Source of the DNA: Strigamia acuminata
Lineage: Eukaryota > Arthropoda > Chilopoda > Geophilomorpha > Linotaeniidae
DNA: 64,000 nucleotides
Direction: 5' to 3'
NCBI GenBank assembly: GCA_949358305.1
Contig: OX442316.1
Span: 9,734,001 to 9,798,000, forward strand
Position 1 is the stretch's first letter; every line of letters begins with the position of its first letter. Positions 1 through 40,103 of this stretch are shown here, in pieces. The notes under the pieces were generated by a model. It saw only the letters and a list, made by a program, of their open reading frames with translations. It had not been told where the DNA came from and searched no databases. Position numbers and translations under genes: made by a program.

Positions 1-607
1 TAGATCCTGTACTTTTGTCTACAAATGGTTTAATAGTTTTTCACCTTAATTAGCAATCTACTCATCCTGTAGTTTTCGAAATAATGATAAATTGATTTCC
101 TATTTCGAAACTAATTGCTAGTTAGTGGATTTTGCATAAATTTGGAAAGAAACACTCACAAAACTCTAAAATAAATAACTATACTACCAACAAAAAACGT
201 GCAACTTACCAAAGTAATAGTTTTGTGCACAAAATCTAAACTACAAATGAAAGAAAAATAAACGACCAGCTGCTACATACACGATAAGGTTATAATTTTG
301 TACAATCCACCAACGTAAAAAATTAAAAAACACTGGAGTTCTTTCAGCAAAAAATGAAAAATAAACATTCCGGATGTTGCAAACGTTATTCTTTTATCAG
401 TCCACGATGCTGCCTTCACAAGCTTGGGCGTTCTGCAAGCCACGTGGATGTATCAATGTATATTACCCTTGAACTGGGGTCACATGGTTCTATCTTGGGC
501 TTGATTTGTTCCAGACTCATTGGCATCAGTTTTTATTATTTACTTGCATGTGAATTTTTACGGAGTTGATTTATTTCTGTTAAAGTTTGAACAGCTCAGC
601 TTTTGCA
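1..607. other. 5' flank of the esterase gene, no gene seen
   Basis: AT-rich sequence upstream of the first esterase exon. A 71-codon frame at 354-569 has no recognisable domain and no convincing splice context, so I do not call it. No clear TATA box can be assigned. Confidence 0.5.
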
Positions 608-3600
608 ATGCGTTCGTTTCTTACCAAGTTTGGGTTTTCAAAGTACTTGGCAGTTTTTTGGATTCTCTCGTCTGAGTTAGATCGTTGCGCTGCAACTACT
701 CAAAGTGATGTAGTGAAGCTCACGAGCAATGGTTACGTTCTGGGCAAGGAAATACTCCTCCCGGATTCAAATCAAGTTCTTGCATTTTTGGGAATTCCGT
801 ACGCAGAACCACCAATTGGAGAACTACGATTTCAGGTATGGAATAACTATTTAGTTTTTACAATTCCTAAAAATAAAAGCATCCGTAATTTAACAATTTA
901 AAATGTTTCTTATCATTTGTCCACATATTTAAGCTCTTGAATCTTCTCTTATCATTTCCTGCGTTTTATCTTTTATTATGATATAATCTCTGAAATATTT
1001 AATTTTTTTTTTATTTTGCGAACCAGAATTAAATTGCGGCTTAGTGTATGTTGTTTTTATAATTAGTTTTTGATGGGACAATTTGCGGGCGGTTTTAATA
1101 AATCACTATAAACAATAAATTAATTTGTCGTTAGTATTAAATGTATTATTATTTATTTTTAATTTTTATTTTTTTAATTAAAAGTAAAGAAGAATGTTTG
1201 GTTTATTTATAACGTCGGCTTAGTTTCAAAGGTTTAAGATAAAGAATGTAGGAAGCAGTTTATTATCTTCATTTCTCAGTACACATTTAATTGGATAATA
1301 GCTAGTGAATATTAGTGAATAGAACTTTTGAAATACAATTTTCTAATTTAATTTTCAAAATTTAAATTTTTAAATGATTTTAAAACATATGTTCAGTCAT
1401 CGGAGACCAATGGTTTATTTGAAATCCAAAACACACAAATATAAATTTAAAAAACACCAAAAATAAATCATATGTTGTATTAGCTCGTGTCAGCTCATTT
1501 AATCAACTTTCAATTATAATTGTTAGTTTTTGCATTGACAGCCTCCTGTTGATAAAAAAGATTGGAATGATGTTTTAAATGCAACGCAGTTCGGTCCCAT
1601 CTGCTACCAACATGAAAACATCCGAATTTGGCTTGTAGATGAAGGTGATTCGGGACAAAAAACACTCAAAATCAAAATGTTAAAATCCTACACCATGAGC
1701 GAGGACTGTCTTTCATTAAATGTTTACATACCAAAGGTATTTACAAAACTTTTTAAAAAATTAGAAACTGTTTCAATACGATGTAAATATAGCGTGTGAA
1801 AGTCATTACAGACAGCTGCTACTCTTGGCCCGTTACCAGTATTAGCGTACATTCATGGCGGCTCTTACGGAATAAATTCAGGGCGGTTTTACGATGGAGA
1901 AATATTAGCGAGTAAAGGAGTTATTGTCGTCACTAGTAATTATCGGCTTGGTGCATTAGGTAATGCTAAGTAATTTCATTTTAACCATATAGAAATTAAA
2001 ATTGCATCAACTGTTTAATAGGTTTTCTTAGCACGGGGGACAATGCGGCAACTGGAAATTACGGTTTATTAGATCAATTGCATGTTTTCAAATGGATTCA
2101 GAAAAATATTGCAAATTTTGGAGGCGATCCCAAAAAAGTAACAATATTTGGAAACAGTGCTGGCGCATCTAGTGTTGCTTTTCATTTAATATCACCATTA
2201 GCGAAAGGTTAATGAAAAGTAATCTTGTACCCTCTTGACTAAATTTACTATATTTGTGTTTTTTACAGGTTTGTTTTCATCCGTTATTGCTGAGAGCGGA
2301 TCTCCACTTGCTCCGTGGGCTCTGCAGGCAAAACCGCATTTTTGGGCCACGACATTAGCCGAGGACTGTGGATGTCCGATTAGTCCAACGAGCACTTTGG
2401 TGGAATGTCTTCGAGATTTATCAGCTAAGAATGTCATTGAACAAGCTACAATTTCAGTAAAGAATTTTGCAATTGTGTAATTAGAAAAATAATTTTATAA
2501 TTTTACATAAATGAATTAGAATGGACTTCTTGTGCCCTATGCTCCGGTTGTTGACGGTTGGTTTGGTGGCGATTATCTTCCAGACCACCCTGAAATTATG
2601 ATCAACTCGGGTCGATTTCTAAAGCTTCCGTTCATGACAGGAGTAACGAGAAACGAGGCCGCCATCTGGTATCAAATGGGTAGGTCAGTACAATTTAGTC
2701 AAAAATAAATAGAAATATTATTTTTATTTAAAACTCTTGGCACAATTTATCTGCATTATTTGAGGTATCTATCTCTTTTCTTTAGGTAGGCGGCAACAGA
2801 GTATGCATTTTTTGGAAGCCTTGATTAGCATGCATGTTGATCTACTACTGGTAAATAGCAGTGTTTCTGATTCGAACCATGCTGCCTTGACTCACGCCAT
2901 TATGACTCAATACTTCTACAAAAATGGGTTTACTGATTTAAATGGTGAAGGAAATTCGAGCTTTTTGATTGATGTAAGTCGTTTTTGAAGAAAAAAAGAA
3001 AAAAACGGTTTTGAAGTCTTAAAAATGAAGTTTATTTTGTCAGTTTGTATCAGAAGTGGTTTTCAAAGCTCCGTGTGTTAAACTTTTACAAAGCATGAGC
3101 AAACATACCTCAGAACCCATATATATGTACGAATTTGCATATTTTAGCCTTGACGATGTGAAAACACAAGACTGGGTAGGTGAGTTTCAGTTTCAGATTG
3201 AGTTAAACTTTAAATGAGATATTTCATCTATTGATTTTTGTATACACACAGGAGCTTATCACGAAAGCGAGTTACAATACATTTTTGGTATGCCCCATCT
3301 CAATTACTCAAATACATTGAGGCTGGAAAATGACAAAACAGTTAGTGATTTTATGATGGAGTTGTGGATTAACTTTGCAAAATACGGGTGTGTTTTATTT
3401 TAATACCTAATTACATAATCAGGCGTTACTCACCTATGATTTCTGGGCTTAGGAATCCAACTACACCGTTTTATAACCCTTTAGACGTCACTTGGCAGCC
3501 ATATACACCAAATCGTCAAATATACCTCGAAATTACTGAAAGTCCAGCAATGAAGGAAAATTATTTAGTGGAGAATTCGATATTTTGGAATTCTTTCTTT

Positions 3601-3810
3601 CCTATCTTCAGGGACTACTCCATCGACAGTGAACCAGCTTCAACTACAACACCTTCCCACTCCAGCAACGAATGGCTTGTCTGGTTTCTGACGGCATTAG
3701 TGTGCTTGTTGTGTGTATCATGTGCATCATTGTTGATTTACCTCATTCGTCGTCGACCTTTAACAGTGGTAAAGCAAGGCGGCGATAGGAAAAGTATTAC
3801 GGCTGTTTAA
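608..3810 (+). CDS. Membrane-anchored carboxylesterase / neuroligin-like protein, 10 exons
   Basis: Exons 608-835, 1542-1736, 1812-1959, 2022-2207, 2269-2456, 2520-2679, 2786-2973, 3044-3179, 3252-3387 and 3453-3810 join in phase into 640 codons. The ATG at 608 begins a signal-peptide-like N terminus ([18 protein letters not shown]). Family motifs occur in order: [30 protein letters not shown] (oxyanion region), FGNSAGA (nucleophile Ser236), TRNEA (Glu361) and AYHESE (His480). The Ser/Glu/His triad of cholinesterase-type hydrolases therefore looks complete. A single transmembrane helix (about [15 protein letters not shown]) near the C terminus is followed by a short basic tail ending SITAV, a class I PDZ-ligand shape. 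HGGSY, the anchor and the PDZ-like end recall neuroligins, whereas classical neuroligins lack the catalytic Ser. It is either a tethered esterase or a catalytically competent neuroligin relative; substrate unknown. Confidence 0.85.
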
Positions 3811-11816: not shown

Positions 11817-14800
11817 ATGGAAGAAATATCTCCCACGTCCTCTAATGATAATTGTTATTTAAAAGCAGACGACGTACGTCGAGATGTTCGGAAATTAATA
11901 ACTGATTTGCACCGTAGTCATCATGGAAAAATACCTTTAATATTTCAACTTATTTGGTTTTTCATGACAGCAATTTGCTTATTGCTTGCAGCTTATCAGA
12001 TTTTAGGCCGTGTGGACTATTATTTTTCTACTCCAATACAAACTGAAGTGCAGTTTAACTTATTGACCGACGGTCAATTACCTGAGATTGCATTCTGCTC
12101 ACCGCAAAGTGATTATTTAGCCGAATTGATGCTCAATAAGGAGGGCGATAGGGAGTTCATTGAATGCGCTTTACCGTTGTATACCGTGCTCAAAGACGAC
12201 AATGCAAATCCTGATAAATTGTGGAACTTTACAAACGTCCCGGAACGTGTGCAAAGTTTTGCATTAGCGAATGTAAGTAATTTATTTCATTAGTAAATAA
12301 TTTTATAATAATTTTATAAATTAATTGTAGGCTGCTAACAAGGACGCATTTCTTGTGACAAAAAAGAAGTCTATTATAGGACATTGCACTAGCTATCAAA
12401 ACAGTAAGAATCAATTATTTTATTTATTACAGTCATGTTGCATGAATTTTAAATTTTTAAATTTGTTTTTTATTAGAAAGGCGAATAAAATTCTCGCATA
12501 ATCAAAGAGATGTTGCCAAGGTGACATTAAACACTCATACGTATTGCCCAACCACGATTGTTGTCGTAAGGCAGTTTTTAATTAAACGAGTCCGACAAAT
12601 CATTTAATTTTCCAAATTTAGATCGCCATCAAAGATGAAATTGATTTTACTTTTGGCATGACAGTTTCGAGCAAAATTGGACCTATCATGAAGTTTGGTG
12701 TAAGAAAGGTGAGATTAAACACAAATTAATTCCGTTGTTAAATTTATTTGTGTTGCAATGCATTAAGATTTATTTAGTGACATGTTTTGAATTTGAGAGA
12801 GATTCATTGAACAAAAGTTGAATTTTAGTGAACAAATTGGAGTTACTTTAGAATATGGCCCGCTTCGGAATGGGCCCAAAATTTGGTTACTTACCCCCCC
12901 CCCCCCCAGTCCGAAAATGACACTTAAAAATGTCGGAAATGAACCTAACCTTAACATAACTAGCCTATCCTTAAACTAACCTAAGGTTAGGTTAGCCTAT
13001 CCTTAACCTAACCTAAGGTTAGGTTAGCCTATCCTTAACCTAACCTTAGGTCAGGTTAGCCTATCCTTAACCTAACCTAAGGTTAGTTTAGCCTATCTTT
13101 AACCTAACCTAAGGTTAGGTTAAGGATAGGCTAGAGCAGGTTAGATTAGGTTAAGGTTAGGTTCATTTCCGACACTTTTGAGTGTCATTTTCGGACTCAG
13201 GAGGCTTTATTTGGTAAGTAACCAAATGTTGGGCCCATTCTAAAGTAAATCCAACAAATTTTCTTCTTTGCCGGGTTTAAAAATATAAACTTTGTGTACC
13301 TATCGTAAATGTTTGCTTCATGACAGTATAAAAATAATTCCTACACGTTAAGATAATTACCGCGATTTAATTTGACTCGTGTAAACATTTACAGTACAAT
13401 AATTTAAATTTGCCTCAAAGAAGGTGTGTGAGAAGTGAGGAACTGGGAAGATGTTACAGAAATTGCGTTAATTAACGTTTCCTACACAATGTTAAATGCA
13501 GGTATTGAATATATACATTTATAAAAACAAAATGGTTTGTAATTTGCTTAGCTTATTTTATTCCAGGTTTCCATTTTTTGATTCCGATATAAACTTGCCA
13601 CCGTGTAATTCAAACGTCAGCCGAGAATACATGGAGGTTACCAAAATATTATTATTTCCTGACATTTTTAAGACATGCAACTGTGATGTTAGATGTAACG
13701 ATGTTGTTTACTCCATCAACGTTGATTTGTTTTCTACAACAGCATTGCCACTTCCTGAAATGGAAATCACTATGGACAATTCTGAACTGGTGGTCTCTGA
13801 ATATTACGCTTACGGATTCACACGTTTAATATCAGACAGTTTTTTAATTTGTCGATTATTTCTTGGATTCAGCATATTATCAATTTTCAAAATCCTACAC
13901 CGAGTAATATTTTGGTGTACAGCAAAGTGTAAGAAACACGATCAAGTGTTGACATGCTTAACACTTCACTGCATGGCTGAAATTACACGTTGTAAACCCC
14001 GAGAAAAATGTTCATTTATAAATTTCAAAACGTTCGCTTTACCTTTGTGTGCGTGTTTAGGTTGTTATCTAATCGTAGACAAAATTCAGTATTACTTGAA
14101 AGAGCCCATTTTTAATGTTATAAAAATGGAAATGAAATCATCAGTTGAGTTCCCGTCCATTACCTTTTGTGGACTGAGTGCTAAAGTTTTTGTTTACAAA
14201 AAAATATACGCGAAGAAAAATAAGTTACCAGACTCTTCTATATGTGATCTGGACATTGTGGACATTTGGGGTTGGAAAACTGATTGGACGTTGAAAACTT
14301 TGTGGGAAGCTGTCGTAACGAAGGAATTACCTGATGTCATGTTCGCACAGATTTTTGTAAGATTTTAATACAATATAAATTGCAACTAAACAATTTGAGA
14401 TCAGAAAGTTTGTAAATAGAAAAAGCAAAGTTTTTGATTGAATTGAAGATGTTTGATGAGTCATTCTAATTCTGTTGTTTGATTTCGTTAGGAAACATTA
14501 AACCTCCCACGAATTAATGCGATCAAATCGGAAATCAGCACTCCTTTTGGGAATTGTCTGCATTATAAATTTAGTAAGATGATTTTTTTTGTAAATAATT
14601 CTGGCTTATAACGTGTATTTATTTATGCGTACAGGTGAGGAACCTTTCAGAGGATTTTTTTCATTTTATCCCATTGTTTTTCAGGCATCAAAAGCACTAT
14701 ACAGTTGCAAAAAATCATTCTATAAAGTAAAATCAATTTGTTAGCCTTTCGTTTTATTATTATAATACTTTAATTTACTCCAATTCCAGTTGTTTTTTGA

Positions 14801-15515
14801 CGATTTTAACTCTGATTCGTATAATCTTGCATTATCTATTGATTTGCCAATAGCGTCTGCAACTTTAATGCATTTTCGTGTGACTCAAGTATGTTAGATA
14901 AATGAACACTATGGGGAACATTTAAGGCAAAATAAAATCTTTCACAGATTCATCGTGTGAGTATTAAAAACAGACCTTGCACATCAAAACGGGAGTTTCT
15001 CGAATGCAAACTAAACTGTTTGCAGGATTCTTTACGAAGAGCTGATGTTTGCGAGTGAGCCAATCAATCTTGTTTGGATATTGAATAGATAACTAATAAT
15101 TAATCTTATTTCTTTTATTAGATTACCATTTTTCGCCAATCTGACAACTCAGTTCAAAAATTGTACTTCAAAAACCGAAGCAAAAGACAGTCGCAGAAAG
15201 TACATTGATATTTCCACACATCTAAACCAAAAAAGAAGTTGCAATTGTCCAGTTCTTTGCACGGAAAATGTGTATCACTATGGTTCTGGCACACTTGCAC
15301 CAGAGGAAATTGGATCGATAACAGGCGTCCTTGTGTCTCCTGCTACAAGTAATGTAGAAGTCTTTACGGAAGTAAAATCTTATTCGTATAGAGCTCTCTT
15401 GAATGACATTGGAAATATATTTGTTATAATGTTCGGTGTATCTATTTTAAGTGTTATGAAATTCGCATTTATAAAAATGCCTATGAAAGTCACAAAAAAT
15501 CGTAAACAGGATTAA
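11817..15515 (+). CDS. Two DEG/ENaC channel units fused in one frame, in-frame TAA in unit 1
   Basis: Exons 11817-12272, 12331-12403, 12477-12565, 12622-12708, 13395-13501, 13567-14356, 14492-14573, 14635-14726, 14790-14888, 14948-15054 and 15122-15515 join in phase to 792 codons, interrupted once by TAA at 13473-13475 (codon 262). Unit 1: TM1 at about 41-63, LPEIAFCSP after TM1, a Cys-rich ectodomain, and TM2 with the G-x-S filter GFS (371-373). Without any stop the same exon continues into unit 2: TM1 about 427-441, FPSITFCG, a second Cys-rich ectodomain and TM2 with GVS (766-768). Both units are shorter than most DEG/ENaC subunits. Topology permits fusion, since TM2 of unit 1 ends in the cytoplasm where unit 2 begins. 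Alternatives: unit 1 is dead and unit 2 starts at the ATG at 13973 (385 residues), stop readthrough, or a sequence error. AATAAA at 15707-15712. Confidence 0.75.
12839..13252. mobile_element. Fold-back element copy A with telomere-like core, in channel intron
   Basis: A 414-bp element inside the 686-nt intron of DEG/ENaC unit 1. The ends are imperfect inverted repeats of roughly 110 bp, starting GGAGTTACTTTAGAAT on the left and ending ATTCTAAAGTAAATCC on the right. An 8-bp direct duplication AACAAATT flanks it (12831-12838 and 13253-13260). The core (about 12951-13145) consists of about five 32-bp units that alternate CCTAACC and GGTTAGG orientations. A run of C replaces part of the left terminal repeat. 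No coding capacity: a non-autonomous DNA element. Several superfamilies (hAT and others) make 8-bp duplications, so the family is not assigned. Confidence 0.8.
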
Positions 15516-16207: not shown

Positions 16208-16479
16208 ATGAACGCCGCAATTGTTTTCGGCTGTCTTCTGCTTGTTGGCATTGCAATTGCCGGAGATGAGCATAATCCAGGTAAATAAGAATATACCAAG
16301 AGTGAACTTTTGGAAGTTTCAGTTTTGACACCGAGTGTTTTGTTGTAGATCTCGATTATGCATGCGCTGCCAACCCGTCACCATTTCGGGGTTTTGCTTG
16401 TGATAGAAACTGCCGATTCGTAAAGAAATTCGTTAGCGGTTACTGTGGTGAGGACAACACGTGCCACTGCCTTAACTAA
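16208..16479 (+). CDS. Defensin 1, secreted CS-alpha-beta antimicrobial peptide, 2 exons
   Basis: Exons 16208-16280 and 16349-16479 give 67 residues. A hydrophobic signal peptide (residues 1 to about 20, MNAAIVFGCLLLVGIAIAG) is followed by a very short acidic spacer and a mature domain with six cysteines spaced C-x12-C-x3-C-x10-C-x5-C-x1-C, the arthropod defensin pattern. The family folds as an alpha helix on a beta hairpin held by three disulfides and is secreted to act on bacteria. The intron is phase 1, just after the signal/spacer region, as in the other two defensins here. AATAAA at 16548-16553. No furin-type site is visible between signal and mature domain, so the peptide probably has little or no propeptide. 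Confidence 0.88.
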
Positions 16480-17058
16480 GACTGACCACTGACGACAGGA
16501 TTACGACAATACGATAAATGAAATCATTATGTTAACAATTTTGTTGCAATAAAATTGGGTATTATTAAAGCATACTTGAGGTTTTATTATTCTGCATCTG
16601 AACAAAACTGACAAATGTAAAACGATATCAATTTTATTTTTAAAGCCAAATTTAAAAAAATAAATGAAAACAGCATATGGTTTGAAACTGCCTTCATTTT
16701 CATAGTAAAATCATTCACATCAACGGTTATTATCATCTGTGGCAGTTAAGTTGCATTCCCAGCTAATAAATGCGGCAAAAACATTTACTATACTTTCTCA
16801 AATCATACAGTGAAACCTGTGATGCTGTTCCTGATGAGTGATGACCAATGCCTAGATAAACCATTTTCTTTTGGCACTAGCACACTGCTGGACTGGCCTG
16901 GTGGCCCGTCCCTGTGGCCCGGCCCATTCAGATTTCCCGGGACTAAATTTGTACCCAGTCCAAACCTGCTGACGTGCGAGTCAAATAAACGTGTACGAAA
17001 CAATACCGTATTGCATTGCTTCCATGGGCAATAAATCGGTCCTTTCCAAAACCCAATC
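16480..17058. other. Intergenic, no gene seen
   Basis: AT-rich downstream sequence with a GC-rich patch at about 16880-16950 (many GGCC motifs). Open frames on both strands here overlap the GC-rich patch and show no domain. Confidence 0.45.
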
Positions 17059-17700
17059 GGATACTTTAGAATAGGGCTCACTTCAGAATGAGACAAAAAT
17101 TTCGTTACTTACTAAACAAACCCTCCTGAGTCCAAAAATAACACTCAAAAATGTCGGAAATAAACCTAATCTTAACCTAACCTAACCTGGCCTAGGCTAT
17201 CCTTAACCTAACCTAACCTTAACCTAACCAAACCTAACCTAACCTTAACCTAACCTAACCTTAACCTAACCTAACCTTAACCTAACCTAACCTTAACCTA
17301 ACCTAACCTTAACCTAACCTAACCTTAACCTAACCTAACCTTAACCTAACCTAACCTTAACCTAACCTAACCTTAACCTAACCTAACCTTAACCTAACCT
17401 AACCTTAACCTAACCTAACCTTAACCTAACCTAACCTTAACCTAACCTAACCTTAACCTAACCTTAACCTAACACTAACCTAACACTAACCTAACACTAA
17501 CCCAACACAACCTAACACTAACCTAACCTTAACCTTAACCTAACCTTAACCTTAACCTAACCTTAACCAGGTTAGGTTAGGTTAAGATTAGGTTTATTTC
17601 CGACATTTTTGAGTGTCATTTTCAGACTCAGGAGGGCTTGTTTGGTAAGCAACGAAATTTTGGGCCCGTTCCGAAGCGGGCCCTATTCTAAAGTAACTCC
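17059..17700. mobile_element. Fold-back element copy B with telomere-like array core
   Basis: A 642-bp relative of the element at 12839-13252. The terminal inverted repeats (about 115 bp) match each other and copy A, including GAGTCC/GGACTC-type and AATGTCGGAAAT blocks and an internal GGGCCC palindrome. The core (about 17165-17590) is mostly a run of the 16-bp unit TTAACCTAACCTAACC, about 15 copies, turning into more degenerate CTAACACTAACC units near the right end. The flanking octamers ACCCAATC and GCACAAGC agree at only 5 of 8 positions, so the target duplication is decayed or absent. No ORF. Confidence 0.78.
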
Positions 17701-29816: not shown

Positions 29817-32800
29817 TTATTTCTTCAAGTTATCGGCGTAACTTGGCTTATCTTCCGAACTTGGTTCGTCCAGGTTGGGAGATGTGGTCAATTTTGAAGA
29901 GTAGTCCGAGGGGTCTTCGCTCTCGTTCAAGTAGAAACGTAAGTGACCTGGTGCTTCCAGCGGATTCCCCGTTCGTTCGTGGGCCCAAATTGGCGGCAAA
30001 AAGGGCGACATTCCCTGATTGGTGTGATGGATTCTTTGGGCCTCGGCAATGCTGGTTGGCGCGCGATGGGCTCGGAGTAGTCGTTGATGCTGGATGAAGC
30101 GATCGCCTCCGGCTCCAGCTTCGATAGCGTTCTTCATCCAGACATAAAGAGAATAGCCACGGTCTGGGGTTTGGAGTAATTTTGTTTCAGTATCCTTCGT
30201 CAAGGACAACCCCGGGAAGTACATCCGGAGTCTGGCGGCGATCTGAGGTTCGGCCGTCTTTGAAGCTTTCATGCTCGATTTTGGGCGGAGCAATTTTCCT
30301 TTTGTTTCCTTCTTTTTGAGCGAGACTGGTTCGGCCAGTGGTTCGGAAGGTCTATTTTCCTTCGGCGGAGGCGGAGGAGGAGGCGTCGGATCCCTGGGAG
30401 CCGGAGTTTCCACGACGGGTGTGGTCACTGAAGACGACGGGCGTGGGTGTTGGATGATCGCTCGAACGTTCTGATAGGAGGTCTCTGGATCCGGGTCCTG
30501 GGCCACCATTTGGGCTCGAATTACTGCCGCAGAGGGCACTAGGCGGGTCCAGCTGTCTACGAGAGCCGGCGGGACTTGGAAACCCTCGTGGGCCACCACG
30601 ATCCAGGCTGCCACAGCAACACGTGCGTTTCGGAAGGTGGCGGCGGCCAGCAAAATCGACATCAAGTCGGTAATGGCAACCACGATCCTCGTATTCCAAT
30701 TTGGATGATCCCGATTTTTGTTCTGCGTATATTCAATCGAGATCCGCTGAAGGTTCGTGATGACGTTTTGGATCACGTTTTGTTGGTAGGAGTCCATCTC
30801 GCACAAAAGCGCTCTAGCTTGCTCCACGGTCGTTACCTCCAGAAACTGTTGCAACGTTACCTCCGAAGGGTTGATTGGAGTCGAGGCTTGGATGACTGCT
30901 GGGGCTGGCAACATCGGATTGGGTCCCGTGGATGTCGTTGGCTGAGGCACAGATCTGACCAGACGTCTTGATTTTTCCGGTTCGGGCTTGTCCCAAACGA
31001 TTGGAGTTCTCGTTGAAGTTGAGGCTTCGGGGATAGTTGGGAGAGGTTCGACTTTGGCCGGTCCAAAGCGAGCTTCTCGATGTCTGAGTTGTTCTTCAGA
31101 ACTCAGTGTCGGTGCGCCGATTATCACTTTCTTGCGAAAGGCGCTTGGGAGGCTGACGCTGGATGTTACGCTTCTCGTCTGCGAGAGTTCCGGCTTGATG
31201 AAAGCACTTGGCGCCGTCTCTAGACTCGAGGCGGTCGAGGGAGTCGGGCGGTAGACTGGTTTCGGCTGCATTTGTTGGTATTGCATAACTACCGCGAGGA
31301 GGTCCGCCTGAGTATACATCTTCTTTTGCTCGGGGACCTCGTCGATAATTACCTCATCGTCGATCTTCATTGGTTCGGGACTGTCCCGAATTGATCGTGT
31401 ATCTTCGCAGCGCCTCCTATCTCGCTGTCGAATTTCTTCTTCACGATACGCTTTCCATGAACGTGCGCGACTCTCCGATCCTCTCCTTCTTCGTTCGTCT
31501 TGTAGACGGAGGTTCTCTCGTTCACGTCGGGCTCTTTCATCACGTTCGCGCAGGAACTCCTCTCGGTGTCTATTCCAGGATTCCTTGTTTTCTTCCCGCC
31601 GTCGGAAGTAATTTCTACGATAATCGTCCCAATTTTCTTGGTTCCTATCGCGTCGGCGTTGATCTTCTCGGCGGTCGGGGCGTTCGCGTACATTTTCTCT
31701 TCTTCGGCTGGTTGACGGGGCATCCCTGGATTGAAATCGCGATGTTTGTGGGATCTCCGTCTTTCCCAGGCGAGAGAGAGCGCTTGGTTTGGCCAGGCGT
31801 TTCTCTGTCGCGGGTTTCTTATTCTGCGCGCTGCTGGAAGTGCTTGGCTTGTCCAGGCATGGTTTCTTCGCTGAGCAGCCTGCTTCGTCGTGCTCGTTGG
31901 AGAGACGTTTCTCGGCCTTCTGGCGTTTGCGACCAAAGAAGCCCAAAAAATGCAATTGATGCATTGCTCGTTGCGAGGTGATGAAACCGTGTCTCGGTCT
32001 CCAATCTGGGCGGTCGGGCCGGTCTTCGCGGATCTGAAGGAGCCAAAACCTGATTTCCTCGGTCGAGTAACCGTCCGGCTGTAGATAATTGAAAACCTCG
32101 TCATGTGCGGTCCGCCTTACTTCTTCGTAATATGCCATATGAATCTGGTGTTTTTCTTCATCTGTTTCGGCGTCGCGCCATTGTTCGTAAACGTCCCATC
32201 CTCGCTGGTCGTCAGGAAAGGCGGCTCGGATTAGTGGATTCGGGATTGGCGCTGGCGGGTCCATATTTCTCGAGATAACTGCCCGTAAAGCTGCTTGATA
32301 TTGGCGCGGCATGTAGTGGATCAACGTTTGCTGGCTGGACCAGTAGCGGCTGATCGCACGGGACAATAAAAGGCGAATTTTCCATGGTTCAAAGTCGACC
32401 GCTTCTTCGAGCGCTTGTCGGAACAGTATGGGGATTACTTCGCGCCATAAGCTGCCTGCGGAAACTCTTTTCGGGTCGATTTGCCCCCACGTAGTGCGAT
32501 ATCCGTCCTAAATATTAGAATATTAATAAATATATTAGGATCGTTGATTAATTTGTCATATTTTTGTAGAGATTCTTTCGTCTAACACAAGATGGCGTCA
32601 TGGTCGGCCATGTGCTTTTCGACCACGTGTCTTGAAGTTAATTTTTCTTTCGGTATTTGATTAATTTTGATAATTTGTCACTTAAAGTTAAATTATTTCT
32701 TCGTTTGTGGTCAGTCCACGAACTTATTTCGTATTTTTGATTATCGATAATTGAATTTTTTCTATTTTTTACTTACGTCGGGTTGGACATCGGGTTCATT

Positions 32801-32926
32801 GGGTTCGTCCCAATTTCCCTCTTCGTTGTTTACAATGATTTGTAACAAATCCACTTGATCTTCATCGTCATCCTCGGAAGCGTTGTTTACGGCCCGTTCA
32901 ATTTCTTTCTTCCAATCATTTCTCAT
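29817..32926 (-). CDS. Retrotransposon ORF3, spliced, unknown function, in env position
   Basis: Minus-strand exons 32777-32926 (50 codons, ATG at 32924-32926) and 29817-32507 join in phase across a 269-nt GTAAGT...TTAG intron to give 946 residues. The first exon is acidic (SEDDDEDQVD). The second holds a helical N-terminal region with Trp-rich patches, a very long Arg/Glu-rich section with RRE/RDR dipeptides, Pro/Ser/Thr-rich linkers, a mid helical domain (around LQQFLEVTTVEQARALL) and a C-terminal domain around LRMYFPGLSLTKDTE. No signal peptide, no convincing membrane anchor and no furin site, so it does not look like an envelope glycoprotein. Expression could use the GTAAG donor just before the gag ATG (40037) and an acceptor near 32974, by analogy with spliced env messages; that is inference. 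No family recognised. Confidence 0.75.
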
Positions 32927-33104
32927 TTTTCGGAAACTAATTTGATTTCACGGCTGTCTCGAGGTGATCGTTGCTTAGTCGGAGATGACAGTGATAAGTG
33001 TGGGTCGGGTTAGAGGTTAACTATTAGTCTCATGTCATCTTTGATTGGTTTGGCCAATTAAGACGCATTGTGGGACGTAACAGGTGTCCCCCCTGTGGTT
33101 GTTT
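32927..33104 (-). other. Pol-ORF3 spacer with candidate splice acceptors
   Basis: Short region between the pol stop and the ORF3 ATG. On the minus strand a pyrimidine-rich tract ends CGACTAAG at 32974, and AAATTAG lies about 10 nt before the ATG; either could serve a subgenomic spliced RNA. Confidence 0.4.
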
Positions 33105-36100
33105 TTATCGATTGTTTGAGACAATGGCCGGAGTCGCTTTTTGTTTTCCGACGAGTTTCCCGTCTTTTATGAACGGGTTTGGCTTGTGTCGGCGCATACC
33201 GTATATTTTATCAGGTTTGGGGATTCCTGTAGTCTTCTTTTTGTTTGATTGCTTTCCTTTTTTAGGAGATTCTGCGACTATTTCCTCCCTCCCCGAAATC
33301 TCATCCGGGGCGTCGGCCACTTCGAGTAACTCATCTTGAACTAAATTGGTTGGGCCAGTTTGTTCATCTAAAAACATGTCGCGAATAATTGGATTTTTCG
33401 CTGGTTTCGTCTGATATTCCGTCCAAGCCTCTTGAGGAAACTCAGGTAAGTATGGAGTTAATTCTCGGGCGTGGATCGATCTAAAATTAACGTTATCTGC
33501 CAATCTTTTTAGCTTGAAAGCGTTTCCGCCGTGGGCTTCGAGTATGACGTACGGGCCGTCGCGTTTGTCTGCTAAGCCTGCGTGGATCCCCTTATCGGCG
33601 CTGGACTGAATATGTGTGTCTTTCCAGACGAGGTCATTGACTTTAAAATTGCAGAAGGGCCGATCCTTTCCAGCAATGCTAATACGATCTCTCATGTCGA
33701 ATATGTGTGACATCATGTGCTGATAAGTGGCCGAAATTATTTGCTCCAGTCTGTCGACATAAATATGAGGCTTCTCAGGATCAATTTCCAGTATTTCCTC
33801 CGGTATTCGTGGGTCCCAGGGTACTCTGAGTTCCCGAGCGAAGTTTAGAAACGCGGGAGAAAATTTGCGGTTCCTTGAGATCGTTGTGCGGATGCTGAAG
33901 GCAATTTCACGAAGATATTCGTCCCAGCTGGAGTGAACATCGGTGAAAATTGCTAGTGCATATTTTATATCGCGATTTAACCTTTCGACGGGATTGGCCC
34001 GTGGATTATAGGTTGATGTATATGATGTCTCGATGTCGAATTTTTTACAGAAGTCTTTATACAAATTTGACGCGAATTGTGGTCCATTATCGGAGATTAA
34101 TTTTCGAGGGAATCCAAAATGAAGCGCCACTTCGTACAAACATCGAATGATTTTTTGCTTAGTTGGTCTCTCCATTGGAAAGAGTTCGGGCCATCCAGTC
34201 GCGACATCCATGATTACTAATATATATTTGTTTTTATTGGATGACGTGGGTTTTGGGCCCATTAAATCCACGCTCCAGCAATCGAAGGGTGCGAAAGGGC
34301 CAAGTGAGATTCTCTCGTAGTTCTTGGGCGTCCTCGGCTTGCACGCTTGGCATCTGGGGCAGTGATGAATAAAACGAACAATATCTCGGGTCATTTTTGG
34401 CCAGAAATAAAGTTGATTTGCTCGGTAGATCGTTCTGGCCACTCCAGAATGTCCGGCGAGCGGGTGTCCGTGGACCATCCACAGAAACCTTGTCAGCAGA
34501 CTCCTGGGTATAACGACTTTCATCGAAGTTCCTGTCTCCGTCAGATCATCGCGGAAATTCGGGTGGTGTTTTAGTAGAAGTCCATCCTCGATTAAGTACG
34601 TGGAGGCTTCTCTTTCGAATTCTTCACGTTGGATTTCGTCGAAATTCTCGTCGGGAAATATTTTATCTGTGATGAAGTCTCGATAAGTTTTACAGAAGTC
34701 GTCTGCCATCTGGGCGGCTATTAATTCGTCCCTGGTGGGCGGTTTGCTATTCGTCCCCTTGCTTACGTGGGCGACGAATGCTCGAACGTACTTGTCGGAG
34801 ATTCGAGGTTCTATTGTTAGCTCATAATTTGGGTGAGCGTCCTTGACCGACTGGTACGCTCGGAGCCAATAACTGTAATAATTCTGGTCTCCTGACTCGA
34901 GTTTCTCCTTGGGTAATTCGTTTAGCTTTTTAAATTCCCATTTTCGGACGGGGTTCGGACAGTAGAAGAGGCGTGAGTCGTCCTCTCCGCAGTCGGTCTC
35001 GTCTTCGGGGTCTGAAGCTGGGGCTCGTGAGAGGGCGTCTGCCACGACGTTGAATTTTCCGGGTCGGTATTCAATGATTAAGTCACAAGCCATTAATTCT
35101 AGCTGCCAGCGAGCCATTCTTCCGGACGGTTCCTTCAACGCCATTAACCACTTTAGTGCTTCGTGGTCAGTTTGTACGTTGAACTTGGTAAATTCCAGGT
35201 ATGGTCTGAATTTTCGGATTGCCCAGACGACGGCTAGACATTCTAACTCTGTCGCATTATAATTCTTTTCGGCTGCTTGTAATTTCCGGCTGATGAACAT
35301 CGTCGGGACCTCTAACACTACTCCGTCGATGTCATGCTTTTGAAGCAACGCAGCACCTAGGCCAATTCGACTGGCGTCGGTGTGAAGAGTGAATTCTCGA
35401 TTAAGATCTGGTAGGGGAATTCGTTTTACATCGATCAGCATTTGTTTTATTTTGTTAAACGATGTTTCGCAGTGGTCAGTCCACTCGAAATCTTTATCGT
35501 TGCGTAACAGATCTGTGATGGGCGCCGCGACGTCTGCCAAATTTGGGAGCAATCGATTGAAGAAATTCACCATGCCCATGAAACGTTGGACTCCTTTTAC
35601 ATCTTCCGGGGCGGGGAACTGGCTAATCGCCTGGGTCTTTTTCGGGTCGATGGATAGGCCACCTGTTCCGACTGTGTAACCCAGGAATGCCAATTCTTTG
35701 CGGCAAAATTTACTTTTCCCTGGATGAATGTTTAGACCGGCTTTTGTGAGTCGCTCCATGACGTCATTCACGTGTATCAGGTGATCTTCAAAAGTTTGGG
35801 AGACTATGACTATATCATCGAGGTAAGCCCATGCGTATTTGTGTAAGGCATCGCCGAGAACTTTTTCTATTAGTTTTTGAAAGGTGGCGGGTGCGTTTAC
35901 TAACCCGAAGGGCATTACATTAAACATCAGTCGACCCTGTGGTGCCCAAAAAGCTGTTTTCTCTTTATCCTCTTCCCGCAATTCAACCTGCCAGTAACCC
36001 TTGGACAAGTCCATGGTCGTGACCCAGTTAAATGGGGCGAGCTCCCGTAGAATCGCTTCTATTGACGGCATTTGGATGGGGTCGATGACGGTTATGGCGT

Positions 36101-37187
36101 TTAAAGGTCTATAATCGATGCAGAGGCGCGGTTCGGAGCCTGGTCGCATGACGAGGACAATCCTCATTCCATATTCTCCGATGGCGTGCGACACGATCCC
36201 TTTTTCGAGCAACTCGTTGCACATCGTTCTTACGATATGTCTCTTTTGGGGATTCATAGTTTTAAAAGGTACTCGCACCGGTTTTCCCGTAACCAATTCG
36301 ATCTCGTGCATTACGTAACTAGTCTTTCCTGGATCTTTATTTAAGTTCTTCGAGTGCTTCTTGAGCATTTCCTCGAGGAGTTTCGTTTGTTCTTCTCCAA
36401 GATTGGCGTCCATGGCCAGATTATGTATTAAATTCTCCTCTTGGAGGATAGTATTAAACGACTTAAAATTATAGTCTTGGATGAACTTCTTAATTTCGCC
36501 TCCTCCCCATTCCTCGTCGTCCTTAGCTTTGTCTAGGAGTTCCGGAGGTATTATGGGTAGTCGTGGGTCCTCGTGGTTGTCGATGTAATTCCACGAACGT
36601 GTGACTGGGTTGGGCTGGATGTTCATCCGTTCCATCAAATCCATTCCTATCAGCAGGATTGTGTCTCGGGTTGGTAACACGATGAAGAAATGCTTAATCG
36701 TGCCTCCTTCCCATACAAAATCGGTTGATAACGTCCCCACTGCTCTAACTTCTCCCGCTGCTGTAAGAACTCGAATATTCTCGTTCATTCCCCGTAATTT
36801 TTTCTGTATTTTTTCTTCGAGTGATTCGAATAAGTCGGTGGAGATAAACGACTGATCCGCTCCCGAGTCGAGTAGTCCCATTAACACCTTTTTGCCGAAA
36901 GAGACTGGTATTTTAGCCAGTACGCTCTTCGCTTCTGTTGATAGGTTGCAACGAAGTATTCGCTTTTTAAGAGGATTGGCCCCTTGGTCAAGCGGCAAAG
37001 TCATGAAAGCGTTGGCTATACCGTCTTCGTCTCTAATTTCGAATTTCCGTTTTTTGGTTGGAGTTGTGACTTCCTCGTTGGCAGCTTCCTCGAAGAATTC
37101 CAACAATTTTTTCATTTCTTTAATTTGTTTTTCCACCAGTGTAAGGTCCATCGTTTTCGAAGTTATCGCGAGCGGATGTGGAATCAC
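33105..37187 (-). CDS. pol: Retrotransposon Pol: protease, RT, RNase H, integrase
   Basis: 1360 codons, open from a GTG that overlaps the gag stop; the first ATG is 36 nt further in (37149-37151). The frame is -1 relative to gag and open upstream of the overlap, so it is most likely made as Gag-Pol by frameshifting. Domains: aspartic protease LLDSGAD (105-111); reverse transcriptase with CIDYRPLN and active-site YLDD (455-458); RNase H with TDAS (603-606), NATELE and TDHE; integrase zinc-binding HHCC (His908/His913, Cys943/Cys946) and catalytic Asp974, Asp1033, Glu1068 (about D,D35E). The C-terminal part after about 1210 is basic and may contact DNA. All catalytic residues expected for the family are present. 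Confidence 0.95.
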   Translation of the reverse strand: MIPHPLAITSKTMDLTLVEKQIKEMKKLLEFFEEAANEEVTTPTKKRKFEIRDEDGIANAFMTLPLDQGANPLKKRILRCNLSTEAKSVLAKIPVSFGKKVLMGLLDSGADQSFISTDLFESLEEKIQKKLRGMNENIRVLTAAGEVRAVGTLSTDFVWEGGTIKHFFIVLPTRDTILLIGMDLMERMNIQPNPVTRSWNYIDNHEDPRLPIIPPELLDKAKDDEEWGGGEIKKFIQDYNFKSFNTILQEENLIHNLAMDANLGEEQTKLLEEMLKKHSKNLNKDPGKTSYVMHEIELVTGKPVRVPFKTMNPQKRHIVRTMCNELLEKGIVSHAIGEYGMRIVLVMRPGSEPRLCIDYRPLNAITVIDPIQMPSIEAILRELAPFNWVTTMDLSKGYWQVELREEDKEKTAFWAPQGRLMFNVMPFGLVNAPATFQKLIEKVLGDALHKYAWAYLDDIVIVSQTFEDHLIHVNDVMERLTKAGLNIHPGKSKFCRKELAFLGYTVGTGGLSIDPKKTQAISQFPAPEDVKGVQRFMGMVNFFNRLLPNLADVAAPITDLLRNDKDFEWTDHCETSFNKIKQMLIDVKRIPLPDLNREFTLHTDASRIGLGAALLQKHDIDGVVLEVPTMFISRKLQAAEKNYNATELECLAVVWAIRKFRPYLEFTKFNVQTDHEALKWLMALKEPSGRMARWQLELMACDLIIEYRPGKFNVVADALSRAPASDPEDETDCGEDDSRLFYCPNPVRKWEFKKLNELPKEKLESGDQNYYSYWLRAYQSVKDAHPNYELTIEPRISDKYVRAFVAHVSKGTNSKPPTRDELIAAQMADDFCKTYRDFITDKIFPDENFDEIQREEFEREASTYLIEDGLLLKHHPNFRDDLTETGTSMKVVIPRSLLTRFLWMVHGHPLAGHSGVARTIYRANQLYFWPKMTRDIVRFIHHCPRCQACKPRTPKNYERISLGPFAPFDCWSVDLMGPKPTSSNKNKYILVIMDVATGWPELFPMERPTKQKIIRCLYEVALHFGFPRKLISDNGPQFASNLYKDFCKKFDIETSYTSTYNPRANPVERLNRDIKYALAIFTDVHSSWDEYLREIAFSIRTTISRNRKFSPAFLNFARELRVPWDPRIPEEILEIDPEKPHIYVDRLEQIISATYQHMMSHIFDMRDRISIAGKDRPFCNFKVNDLVWKDTHIQSSADKGIHAGLADKRDGPYVILEAHGGNAFKLKRLADNVNFRSIHARELTPYLPEFPQEAWTEYQTKPAKNPIIRDMFLDEQTGPTNLVQDELLEVADAPDEISGREEIVAESPKKGKQSNKKKTTGIPKPDKIYGMRRHKPNPFIKDGKLVGKQKATPAIVSNNR

Positions 37188-37217
37188 TTTTGTTCCGCCC
37201 GCGAGTTCCAGTTTTTT
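37167..37217 (-). promoter_or_regulatory. -1 ribosomal frameshift signal between gag and pol
   Basis: On the minus strand the heptamer A AAA AAC (37211-37217) sits in the gag frame. After a 7-nt spacer comes a potential stem: CGCGGGCGG (37195-37203) pairs with CCGCTCGCG (37167-37175) over nine positions with one G-U pair and a 19-nt loop. Slipping back one base leads straight into the pol frame before the gag TGA (37184-37186). Spacing and heptamer match known -1 signals. Confidence 0.8.
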
Positions 37218-40030
37218 GTCATACTGTCGAATTTGGCGGTGAGTTCCTTCAAGATTTTTTCTTGTTCCTTCGCGAGCAATTTCACTAGCTCCTCACGCTC
37301 TGCGGCCTTGTCGTCGGCTTTTTTCTTTGCCAGTTTTGGGCAGGCCTGACGCCAGTGGCCGTCTTCGTTACAGAAATTACAAGGGCTTTTCTTCTTTCCC
37401 TCCCGCTCAAAAGGTTTTTTGGGGTAGTCCTTCTTCTCGGAAGTCGCCTCTGTTTTCGGGTTGTGGTGTTCCGATTTTCTGGACTTCATCTGAGGTCGGT
37501 AGCTGGGCGCCAGTTCCTTCCCCATGTTTGCGTGTACCACATCGTTGATACCTTCGTCAGCCTCATCGCTTTCCGAGAATTGCTCAGAGTCTTCGCTTAC
37601 TTCGTCTTCCGACTTTTCCTCGGCGGCGTTAGTTTGCGTGCGATAGGCCTTATTCGGAGGTGGTAAAGGGTTAGAAGCTTGTTGGTTTTTCTTTGAGGGG
37701 AGTGGCTCTATACTTCCGTTTAGATAATTTCGCGATTGGAGCAGCTTAGTGGAGTCTATGCTGCGCTCCTGTATTCGTTGCTGTCGGGCCACTCCTAGAG
37801 CTCGCTCTTCTTTTGTCAGATTTTCGTTATACCGAGCATTTACTTCGGTGTGTTTCTTCTCGACGAAAGCTAGGATGGCTTTGAAATTATCCCCTTTAGG
37901 AGCGTTCATTTCTCGTAGGACTTTGGTTGCGGTTTCGTTTAGTCCTTGTTCGAAGAGAGCTTTCTGAGCGTGTTGGTCAAATGGTTTGTCCATTTCACGG
38001 AACAGGCTGTCGGCTCGTTGTACGTATTCCCTCAGAGTTTCCCCGGGAGCTTGCTTCATAGAGCTTACTCTTTTCTGGATTTCTTGGCTCGTCTCGCCAT
38101 ATTGATTGTGGAACTTTATGACGAAATCTTCCCAGTTTCGGGGTTGGACATCAGCGTACCAGTTTCGGGCCCGGTTGATCAGCATTTCTGGTATTCCGCG
38201 TGCAACCATTTCGTCGGGTTCCGCTCCTAAGCGATTAATCGTCAGGGCGACTTCGTCCAAAAACAAGTTGCCGGCGTTCCAGGATCCGTCGAACTTAATT
38301 AGTCTCGGGGTCGTCCACTTGATGTTGTTATCCTTGCGAGAATACAGCCATCGGTCTGCGGAGTAACGTTTCAGCAATCCTTCGCTTCGATCGTCCTCCT
38401 CGGTCTCTTGGCCACGGCTTTGTTGAAGTTTTTGGTCCATGGCCTGAAGGAGTTCGTCTTTCATCGTCCGTAGTTGGTTGCTTAGCGAGTCAGTCTCACT
38501 AAGCAGCGGTGATGATCGTGGATTGTCGGAAGGGAGGCTTGGGTAATGCGTACCGTTGCCCGTCAGTCCGAACTGATTGTGTTGGAACGACGTTTTCCCT
38601 GATGATCCCGCGGTGTTCGGGTTATTCGTGAGGTCTTGCGCTATGGTTGAGTTATCTGGGTTCGCTTTCTCTGGAGCGGAGGTTTGGCTCAACTTTGTTC
38701 CGGGCGGTATCAGATCGTCCAGTCGGGTCCCCGTGAGGCCTTCGTTCGTTTTTTTGATAAAAACGTAGGAATCTCTCCCAGCATACGCTTCGGCGGCGTG
38801 TTTCTTTTCGAGGTGATTTTTAACTGCGTTAATCTCCTCGAGCGTCGGCATGGCCAGTTTATTTTGACCTACTTCGTTGCGTATTTGATTCTTCTGATTT
38901 ATACATCTGATTAGCTCTGCGTTAGGGTCGCCTGGGTTGTTATTACTGGTTTGGCCAGTTTTCATTGCGAATGAGTTTTTTACTGCCCATGATTGTGCGC
39001 CCTGATTATTCCTCCTATCCTGTATAAACGCCTCGTACAGTTCTCCTTTGACTTCGTCCGATTCGTTCAAGATGCTATCTAGTCCGTTGACTCGGATACT
39101 GCCGTGAGATGCTTGAGAGTCGATACTTTCGCTGTCTGACGTTGCTTCGCCGCCTGTCTCGGACTGTTGTCGATCCGCTCCGACCCGACGTCGTTTCTCT
39201 CCGCGTCTGGCCGTGTTATCTGCCGATCGTTTTTCAGTCCTCTGATTTACTAGGTCGATTACTCGGCTTAGCTCTGCGTAGGGATCCTTGTCCTGGTCGA
39301 TCTCGATGCCGTGTGCGCAAGCTACCCGAGTTACTTCTATTGCTTTGGCTACCAGCTCCTTAGCTGTGTGAGACCGTTCTGGGGAGCTCTGTACGGAGTT
39401 TGGCTCCGAATGCTGGCTTAACCCGTTGCTTGGCGGCCGGATCTGGCAGTCCTTTGCCATTTCTTGTTCGATTATTTTCTGCTTCGCGAGCAATTCTCGA
39501 GCCAGCTCGCGCTCCAGTGCCATTTGTTTAGCTTGGTGTTCTTGTGCCAAGCTCTGTTCCATGGCAGCTAATTTCTCGCGATGCTCTCTGGCTAAATCTT
39601 CCATCAATTCGTTTTTCTTCTTCTCTAACGCGACTGTTCTTGCTTGGTCTGCGCGGGTAGCCTCGTTGATAATTGCGGCACTTGTGTTTGCCGCTTTATT
39701 TAGAAGAGTCATTAGATCCATTTCACTGGGATCCTTTTCGACTGGTCTTGGGCTTTTCAATCCGAATCGAGGGTTTTCGAACGATTTATTTAGTCCGTTT
39801 TCTTCGTGAGAGCTTCCTGATCCTTCGAATTCGCCTCCCGTAAACGGAAGTTGTCTTGCAAGGGGAAGGCTTTCACTTGATGATTCCGTTGAAACTTTAG
39901 TCGAGTTAGTCTCGACTTCTGGTTCCACGTGGTTCGCTTCTTCCGCTTTTTGGCGTTCGATTTCTTCGGCTTCTTTTCTATCCTTTTCGTCGTTACGCCT
40001 TTTTCTATCTTCTGCGGTAGTTTTTGTCAT
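37184..40030 (-). CDS. gag: Retrotransposon Gag with zinc knuckle, unusually long
   Basis: 948 codons from the ATG at 40028-40030. The N-terminal third is charged, with a coiled coil rich in Ala/Glu/Gln (about LAREHREKLAAMEQSLAQEH). The retrotransposon-gag capsid domain lies around residues 560-720 (RLIKFDGSWNAG, RARNWYADV, LREYVQRADSLF). A CCHC zinc knuckle CNFCNEDGHWRQAC (884-897) binds RNA in this family and is followed by a Lys/Glu helix. Most Ty3/gypsy Gags are 300-500 residues, so the N-terminal 500 residues are an extension. Forms the particle shell and packages RNA. Confidence 0.92.
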   Translation of the reverse strand: MTKTTAEDRKRRNDEKDRKEAEEIERQKAEEANHVEPEVETNSTKVSTESSSESLPLARQLPFTGGEFEGSGSSHEENGLNKSFENPRFGLKSPRPVEKDPSEMDLMTLLNKAANTSAAIINEATRADQARTVALEKKKNELMEDLAREHREKLAAMEQSLAQEHQAKQMALERELARELLAKQKIIEQEMAKDCQIRPPSNGLSQHSEPNSVQSSPERSHTAKELVAKAIEVTRVACAHGIEIDQDKDPYAELSRVIDLVNQRTEKRSADNTARRGEKRRRVGADRQQSETGGEATSDSESIDSQASHGSIRVNGLDSILNESDEVKGELYEAFIQDRRNNQGAQSWAVKNSFAMKTGQTSNNNPGDPNAELIRCINQKNQIRNEVGQNKLAMPTLEEINAVKNHLEKKHAAEAYAGRDSYVFIKKTNEGLTGTRLDDLIPPGTKLSQTSAPEKANPDNSTIAQDLTNNPNTAGSSGKTSFQHNQFGLTGNGTHYPSLPSDNPRSSPLLSETDSLSNQLRTMKDELLQAMDQKLQQSRGQETEEDDRSEGLLKRYSADRWLYSRKDNNIKWTTPRLIKFDGSWNAGNLFLDEVALTINRLGAEPDEMVARGIPEMLINRARNWYADVQPRNWEDFVIKFHNQYGETSQEIQKRVSSMKQAPGETLREYVQRADSLFREMDKPFDQHAQKALFEQGLNETATKVLREMNAPKGDNFKAILAFVEKKHTEVNARYNENLTKEERALGVARQQRIQERSIDSTKLLQSRNYLNGSIEPLPSKKNQQASNPLPPPNKAYRTQTNAAEEKSEDEVSEDSEQFSESDEADEGINDVVHANMGKELAPSYRPQMKSRKSEHHNPKTEATSEKKDYPKKPFEREGKKKSPCNFCNEDGHWRQACPKLAKKKADDKAAEREELVKLLAKEQEKILKELTAKFDSMTKNWNSRAEQK

Positions 40031-40103
40031 TTCTTACGATATAATGATCGATCGAAAGATCCCGGTTATTATTTAAAGTATTGTCTTAAGGTTAGCAAAT
40101 CTA

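What the first reader, a model, noticed from the sequence alone, without database searches (positions are those of the whole stretch)
11817..15515. Two DEG/ENaC channel units fused head-to-tail in one reading frame
The 790-nt exon 13567-14356 carries the pore helix (GFS filter) of unit 1 and then, with no stop, the N terminus, TM1 and post-TM1 segment of unit 2. Animal DEG/ENaC subunits are normally one polypeptide each and assemble as trimers. A natural two-subunit concatemer would fix stoichiometry and order. Topology is compatible because both ends of each unit are cytoplasmic.
Basis: partly seen in the sequence, partly recalled or inferred. Interest (0 to 1): 0.8.

Follow-up and report, generated by a model that had tools for sequence, protein, structure and literature searches.

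The report
Two-unit fused sodium-channel gene family
A centipede genome carries hundreds of genes in which two sodium-channel subunits, normally made as separate proteins, are written end to end as one chain; the copy in this window belongs to that family but has a stop codon in its first half and is probably broken.

Summary
The junction exon is real: 13567-14356 encodes the pore end of one DEG/ENaC unit and, without a stop, TM1 of a second. But the claimed frame 11817-15515 is not open. This copy is probably a young pseudogene in the assembled haplotype.

In the same genome (Strigamia acuminata, judged by assembly size) three capped searches found 332 distinct junction exons, 11 with a stop in the match. 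Of 72 examined, 70 run TM2-linker-TM1 in one frame, with purifying selection on both units and, more weakly, on the linker. Seven of ten modelled paralogs are stop-free chains of 779-827 aa. A 791-aa S. maritima protein (T1JD34) matches one end to end at 61% identity. The two units have different pores: D, E or N in nearly all U1, mostly basic in U2, at the lower-pore selectivity position.

Shown: fused genes. Inferred: translation as one chain, and assembly; a two-unit chain alone does not fix a trimer. I found no report of this in the library searched.

The parts
11817..12272 (+). Unit 1, exon 1: ATG, cytoplasmic N terminus, TM1 (about 11931-11999), post-TM1 segment
   Evidence: length 456 nt against 450-507 nt in the nine paralog models that have an ATG
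12331..12403 (+). Unit 1, exon 2
   Evidence: AG/GT, phase-matched to unit 2
12477..12565 (+). Unit 1, exon 3
12622..12708 (+). Unit 1, exon 4 (87 nt; an 87-nt exon also in 5 of 10 paralog models)
13395..13501 (+). Unit 1, exon 5 (107 nt): segment with four cysteines shared with unit 2; contains the stop
   Evidence: same length as 14948-15054
13473..13475 (+). In-frame TAA interrupting unit 1
13567..14356 (+). Junction exon (790 nt): unit-1 palm and TM2, linker, unit-2 TM1 and post-TM1 segment
13865..13873 (+). Unit-1 filter G-F-S; the segment before it (ISDSFLICRLFL) has lost the GG(N) of the family
13907..14014 (+). Cytoplasmic linker between the units, in frame (36 aa)
   Evidence: boundaries as; 33-48 aa in the sampled copies
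13973..13975 (+).
14015..14077 (+). Unit-2 TM1
14492..14573 (+). Unit 2, exon 7
14635..14726 (+). Unit 2, exon 8
14790..14888 (+). Unit 2, exon 9
14948..15054 (+). Unit 2, exon 10 (107 nt, counterpart of unit-1 exon 5, no stop)
15122..15515 (+). Unit 2, exon 11: palm, TM2 with G-V-S at 15435-15443, stop 15513-15515
12813..13254 (.). Repeat inside unit-1 intron 4, repeated across the genome; not part of the gene
   Evidence: matched part of the query

Best explanation
The locus is one member of a large family of two-unit DEG/ENaC genes in the centipede Strigamia. A typical gene has 11 exons. The last exon of an ancestral first unit and the first exon of an ancestral second unit are merged into one junction exon, so the gene is read as a single chain of about 780-830 aa: TM1-ectodomain-TM2, a cytoplasmic linker of about 39 aa, TM1-ectodomain-TM2. 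The fusion most likely happened once, before S. acuminata and S. maritima split, and then duplicated, partly in tandem arrays. Most likely the chain supplies two adjacent, unequal subunits to a trimeric cation channel: U1 keeps the canonical pore (GGN before the filter, then D, E or N below it), while U2 carries a changed pore, mostly with a basic residue at the lower-pore selectivity site. The third place would be filled by a single-unit subunit or by one unit of another chain. Given the expansion and the closest characterised relatives (a centipede heat receptor and a proton receptor), the family is probably sensory. The window copy has a nonsense codon in U1 and an eroded U1 pore; it is probably a recently disabled member. 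Shown: exon structure, stop, family, conservation. Inferred: one-chain translation, assembly, sensory role.
For: Exon anatomy and stop. Family: 145 junction matches, 141 without a stop inside; 148 and 148 with two other queries; 332 distinct loci. Open frame across TM2-linker-TM1 in 70 of 72 examined, linker 33-48 aa, median 39. dN/dS pooled over 28 independent pairs: U1 0.48, linker 0.67, U2 0.45; linker below 1 by Fisher p = 2e-4. Ten paralogs modelled, 7 stop-free. S. maritima T1JD34, 791 aa, 61% identity over 99%: U1 59%, linker 46%, U2 65%; T1JD59, a 472-aa partial protein, also runs from U1 TM2 into U2 TM1. U1 rows fall on one side of a branch (85/78), and the U2 rows lie with seven unassigned rows on the far side of another (97/89). 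Pore difference; role of that position in ASIC1a from passages of PMC5449180. Window copy an outlier in the U1 pore. Assembly QV 59.6 and 98-fold HiFi (PMC10556566, passages) make a base error at 13473 unlikely.
Against: No transcript, protein or functional data were available. Three of ten paralog models carry stops (L052 one, L116 three, L117 one; those of L116 and L117 lie in poorly matching parts with odd small exons), and some stop-free models (L053, L115, L118) also have odd small exons; L118 has no ATG. The 72 copies were not a random sample: I left out two of the four matches that carry stops. I dropped 15 partial rows, several split or with stops, so broken copies are undercounted. 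Single pairs come close to dN/dS 1 (L052/L054 1.04, L066/L071 0.91). 36 of 70 linkers contain a methionine. The linker is the least conserved part. Flanking exons could be paired only through capped lists: of 144 junction exons, 79 had a first-exon match within 8 kb upstream, 56 a last-exon match downstream, 48 both; of 150 last-exon matches 56 had a listed junction exon upstream. Last exons of a C1 cluster that group with U2 keep an acidic residue below the filter. Mixed trimers versus other assemblies were not tested. The AlphaFold model of the junction exon is of low confidence (pLDDT 64.8, pTM 0.30).
Confidence: 0.82

Rival explanations
1. Two ordinary single-unit genes lie very close together; unit 2 has its own transcript starting at or near ATG 13973, or is the second cistron of a shared mRNA.
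For: There is an ATG at 13973 in this copy, and 36 of 70 linkers contain a methionine. Unit 1 is interrupted in this copy.
Against: 34 of 70 linkers have no methionine. The frame is kept through 33-48 aa in 70 of 72 examined and the linker has pooled dN/dS 0.67. There is no room for a 3' end, promoter and 5' UTR. The one boundary between tandem neighbours that I read looks different: stop, about 1.2 kb, next first exon. S. maritima has a single 791-aa protein.
Confidence: 0.05
2. The chain is made as one polyprotein but cut in the linker, giving two ordinary subunits in fixed 1:1 amounts.
For: The linker is the least conserved part (dN/dS 0.67; 46% identity to S. maritima against 59% and 65% for the units), so it may be only a spacer.
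Against: I did not test for a cleavage motif. The linker is cytoplasmic if each unit has the usual topology (inference), where signal peptidase and furin do not act (recalled).
Confidence: 0.1
3. The window copy itself is alive: the TAA is bypassed by the alternative donor at 13423, by read-through, or is absent from other haplotypes.
For: Donor AAG|GTGTGT at 13423 scores higher than the canonical donor on a generic matrix that I wrote from memory (5.1 against 1.1) and keeps the frame to 13567. My model of the rest of the gene needs no frameshift.
Against: The 13423 form deletes 26 codons with four conserved cysteines. The unit-1 pore has lost GG and gained Arg and Lys, unlike the other sampled copies.
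Confidence: 0.15
4. The family is an array of pseudogenes or an assembly artefact rather than working genes.
For: Stops occur in 11 of 332 junction matches, in several of the 15 partial rows dropped, and in 3 of 10 gene models.
Against: Purifying selection pooled over 28 independent pairs, 7 of 10 models stop-free, and a protein record from another species carries the same fusion.
Confidence: 0.03

Closest known systems
BRTNaC1, Scolopendra DEG/ENaC heat receptor (PDB 8ymr and others)
   Same: Nearest solved sequence to unit 2 (2e-13) and to the U1/U2 profile (3e-23)
   Different: One unit, 431 aa
PDPNaC1, Scolopendra proton-gated DEG/ENaC (PDB 9jf7; PMC12714832)
   Same: Nearest solved sequence to unit 1 (5e-15), aligned on both sides of the TAA
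   Different: One unit, 421 aa; the abstract reports a homotrimer (abstract and two sections read)
T1JD34_STRMM, uncharacterised protein of Strigamia maritima
   Same: 791 aa, two units, 61% identity end to end to paralog L050
   Different: A database record; I saw no transcript evidence or description of it
Engineered ASIC concatemers (PMC10329638, PMC5449180)
   Same: DEG/ENaC subunits joined head to tail form functional channels (passages read)
   Different: Man-made, three units, order chosen by the experimenter
Expanded arthropod DEG/ENaC families discussed as chemoreceptors (PMC7738191)
   Same: Family suggested as chemoreceptors (passages read)
   Different: No two-unit gene is mentioned in the passages I saw
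Channels with natural internal repeats, such as two-pore-domain K+ channels and four-domain Na+ and Ca2+ channels (recalled)
   Same: Subunits fused in evolution into one chain
   Different: The repeat number fits a four-fold pore; here two units meet a three-fold pore

Membership tests
DEG/ENaC (Pfam ASC, PF00858) | Sequence match to the family profile in each unit | tested here: met
   Unit 2 2.2e-13; unit 1 up to the stop 7.2e-08; three intact paralogs 4e-24 to 5e-36 with 2-3 stretches each
DEG/ENaC (Pfam ASC, PF00858) | Two TM helices around a cysteine-rich ectodomain, per unit | tested here: met
   Hydropathy peaks at both ends of each unit; cysteines shared by the units
DEG/ENaC (Pfam ASC, PF00858) | G-x-S filter in TM2 | tested here: met
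   GFS in unit 1, GVS in unit 2; 69 of 71 readable U1 copies G-x-S
DEG/ENaC (Pfam ASC, PF00858) | His-Gly motif before TM1 (recalled) | tested here: inconclusive
   HHG in unit 1 of the window; not seen by eye in its unit 2 or in the modelled paralogs; PDPNaC1 shows none at that place either
DEG/ENaC (Pfam ASC, PF00858) | One subunit per polypeptide | tested here: not met
   Two units in one gene; the polypeptide itself was not observed
DEG/ENaC (Pfam ASC, PF00858) | Trimeric cation channel | not testable with these tools
   No functional or structural data
Two-unit DEG/ENaC gene family described here | Junction exon carrying U1 TM2, linker and U2 TM1 in one frame | tested here: met
Two-unit DEG/ENaC gene family described here | Eleven-exon layout with matched phases in the two halves | tested here: met
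   Window 11 exons; 11 exons in 7 of 10 paralog models, of which L049, L050, L051, L052 and L114 match exon by exon
Two-unit DEG/ENaC gene family described here | Open frame from first ATG to final stop | tested here: not met
   TAA at 13473-13475

The most novel reading that the evidence does not exclude
A geophilomorph centipede lineage evolved natural concatemers of a trimeric ion channel and expanded them into a sensory receptor family of well over 300 genes. Each chain couples a canonical pore unit to a specialised partner unit with a basic lower pore, so that every channel is an obligate heteromer (two units from one chain plus one from elsewhere, or two linked trimers made by three chains).
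Probability: 0.5. Interest if true: 0.92.

Novelty: new variant of a known kind. Interest (0 to 1): 0.82.

Why it matters
I know of no natural concatemer of a trimeric channel (recalled; literature checks are listed under Tried and rejected). A two-unit chain cannot fill a three-fold pore by itself, so these genes pose a concrete puzzle of assembly that expression and structure can settle. With hundreds of copies whose pores differ systematically between the two units, they also offer a natural experiment on how DEG/ENaC subunits divide the work of gating and selectivity, and point to an unexplored receptor repertoire in centipedes.

Tried and rejected
Relatives in the protein database: the window's read-through chain and a two-row U1/U2 alignment found nothing at E <= 0.01; the intact paralog L050 found the two S. 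maritima proteins. DNA-level copies: the other 146 aligned matches all lie in the intron-4 repeat; no second copy of the locus (40 of 209 candidates scored). Triple-unit genes: the second-closest junction pair of the union list (4.8 kb apart) is two separate two-unit genes; the closest pair (4.3 kb) was not read, and one apparent junction-junction-last-exon case rests on capped lists and was not followed. Ways round the TAA by other exons: twelve paths keep the frame with the 13567 acceptor; eleven use unrelated intron sequence and one is the 13423 donor. Structure: one AlphaFold job on the junction exon gave low confidence, so no fold search was run. Rfam: no match in the window. Literature: searches were judged from their listings; I opened, by word search, PMC4244043, PMC7738191, PMC7067487 and PMC9151784. 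None of the passages seen treats DEG/ENaC genes of Strigamia or natural DEG/ENaC concatemers. Searches used 'DEG ENaC', which seems not to match 'DEG/ENaC'; the other papers listed were not opened, and the library is open-access only.
Full report
1. Where this is. The window lies in a genome of 237,517,015 bases, contig C4 9,734,001-9,798,000. Its contig C1 is 66,985,994 bases long, the same as the longest scaffold of the published Strigamia acuminata assembly (237.5 Mb, 98-fold HiFi, QV 59.6; PMC10556566, listing and passages seen). I therefore take the window to be from this centipede.

2. The observation. The exon 13567-14356 is as described: flanked by AG and GT, open throughout, with the unit-1 pore helix (GFS) followed after a short linker by unit-2 TM1. 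Spliced models of the two units give 11 exons with the same phases in both halves, and exons 5 and 10 are both 107 nt. The units align to each other with a score of 152 against at most 62 in 300 shuffles and match Pfam ASC. In the Protein Data Bank the nearest relatives are two Scolopendra channels: BRTNaC1 for unit 2 and PDPNaC1 for unit 1.

3. The stop. Exon 13395-13501 joins unit 1 to the junction exon in the claimed frame, and has TAA in frame at 13473-13475. PDPNaC1 aligns on both sides of it, so the exon is right and the codon is a nonsense codon. Skipping the exon shifts the frame. With the 13395 and 13567 acceptors kept, the one stop-free, frame-keeping path uses donor 13423 and removes 26 codons with four conserved cysteines; 16 further paths use other acceptors and also lose part of this region. 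A base error is unlikely at this assembly quality. The unit-1 pore of this copy is also the outlier of the family: FLI where 58 of 71 readable copies have GGN or GGS, 11 have AGN and one GRN, and Lys six residues after the filter serine where 67 of 71 have D, E or N. I read this as a young pseudogene or null allele.

4. The family. Searching the same genome with the junction exon gave 145 matches, 141 without a stop inside. Two other junction exons as queries gave 148 matches each. For the union I retyped the places; I dropped one partial row and 15 partial rows, several of them split or carrying stops, so broken copies are undercounted. The union is 332 distinct loci, 11 with a stop in the match. 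They form 56 clusters of two or more within 50 kb and 81 single loci. I took DNA for 72 of the 145 loci, not at random: the best ones and a spread of the rest, leaving out two of the four matches with stops. In 70 of the 72, TM2, linker and TM1 lie in one open frame; the linker is 33-48 aa, median 39; 36 of these 70 have a methionine in the linker and 34 have none. Pooled over 28 independent pairs dN/dS is 0.48 in U1, 0.67 in the linker and 0.45 in U2; single pairs range up to 1.04. For the linker the excess of silent change has Fisher p = 2e-4.

5. Full genes. I modelled ten paralogs with a spliced aligner of my own (lengths recounted). Seven have no in-frame stop: L049 827 aa, L050 789, L051 789, L053 779, L114 814, L115 799 and L118 796 (no ATG found). 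L053, L115 and L118 have some odd small exons. L052 has one stop in unit 2, L116 three and L117 one, the last two in poorly matching parts. Flanking exons of other junction exons were checked only through capped lists: of 144, 79 have a first-exon match within 8 kb upstream, 56 a last-exon match downstream, 48 both. Between one closely spaced tandem pair the DNA shows a last exon with stop, about 1.2 kb, then the next first exon: two-unit genes with ordinary spacing between neighbours.

6. Another species. With the intact L050 protein as query the protein database gave two hits, both Strigamia maritima: T1JD34 (791 aa, 61% identity over 99%) and T1JD59 (472 aa, partial, also running from U1 TM2 into U2 TM1). 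Against L050, T1JD34 is 59% identical in U1, 46% in the linker and 65% in U2. The fusion is thus most simply older than the split of the two species, and a separate record carries it as one protein.

7. Unequal units. In a tree of C-terminal domains (56 rows: 28 of the U1 copies, 13 U2, 15 single-unit or unassigned) the U1 rows are one side of a branch (85/78, not starred), and the U2 rows lie with seven unassigned last exons on the far side of another (97/89). This fits one ancient fusion; the U2 rows alone need 3 changes, so a single origin is not proved. The residue six places after the filter serine, by alignment E18' of ASIC1a, is D 31, E 20, N 16 and other 4 of 71 in U1, but R 7, H 3, K 1, Y 1, I 1 of 13 in U2. 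The unassigned C1 last exons that group with U2 have E there, which goes against a simple rule for all U2-like units. In ASIC1a this residue with D21' is reported to form the selectivity filter (PMC5449180, passages). A homotrimer of basic U2 units would put three positive charges there, so I think U2 works in a mixed pore or does not line a conducting one. The genome also has single-unit relatives: C5:5.19M shows a first exon and a last exon with a stop, its middle exons not resolved, and three last exons with canonical pores end 14-20 residues after the filter motif.

8. How it may work. Both ends of each unit are cytoplasmic in this family (established topology, recalled), so a short cytoplasmic linker can join them; engineered ASIC concatemers work (PMC10329638, passages). 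Two units cannot fill a trimer alone. I rank: two units of one chain plus one from elsewhere (most likely), three chains making two linked trimers, and one idle unit. The relatives are a heat receptor and a proton receptor of centipede neurons, and DEG/ENaC members are discussed as chemoreceptors in other arthropods (PMC7738191, passages), so a sensory role is likely; that is inference.

9. What is known. In the papers I could search, nothing seen describes DEG/ENaC genes of Strigamia or natural DEG/ENaC concatemers (listings of searches; word searches inside four papers). The S. maritima protein is public but uncharacterised.

Noticed in passing
29817-40033, minus strand: Retroelement with gag (Retrotrans_gag, weak zinc knuckle) and pol (RT, RNase H, integrase, weak protease) matches in long open frames, and a further 896-aa open frame at 29817-32507 without a Pfam match.
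   Followed up: partly
12813-13254 and about 17037-17700: Stretches rich in CCTAACC/TTAACC units, inside unit-1 intron 4 and downstream of the gene; the intron copy has 146 further aligned matches, some in the window itself, in a capped search.
   Followed up: partly
16208-16479, plus strand: Small two-exon gene: signal-peptide-like start and a six-cysteine mature peptide resembling a defensin by eye; no Pfam match.
   Followed up: partly
584-901, plus strand: Carboxylesterase-family exon (Pfam COesterase 4.5e-10); an open frame at 3373-3810 with a hydrophobic stretch, without a Pfam match, may be its membrane end.
   Followed up: partly
G000:C1:26.8-29.0M and C1:1.43M (L041-L045, L048): Last exons that group with U2 but keep an acidic residue after the filter in most; whether they are two-unit genes or single U2-type genes was not settled.
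   Followed up: partly
G000:C5:5189920-5193253 (L004, L119): Single-unit DEG/ENaC gene with a canonical pore, a possible third-subunit partner; middle exons not resolved.
   Followed up: partly
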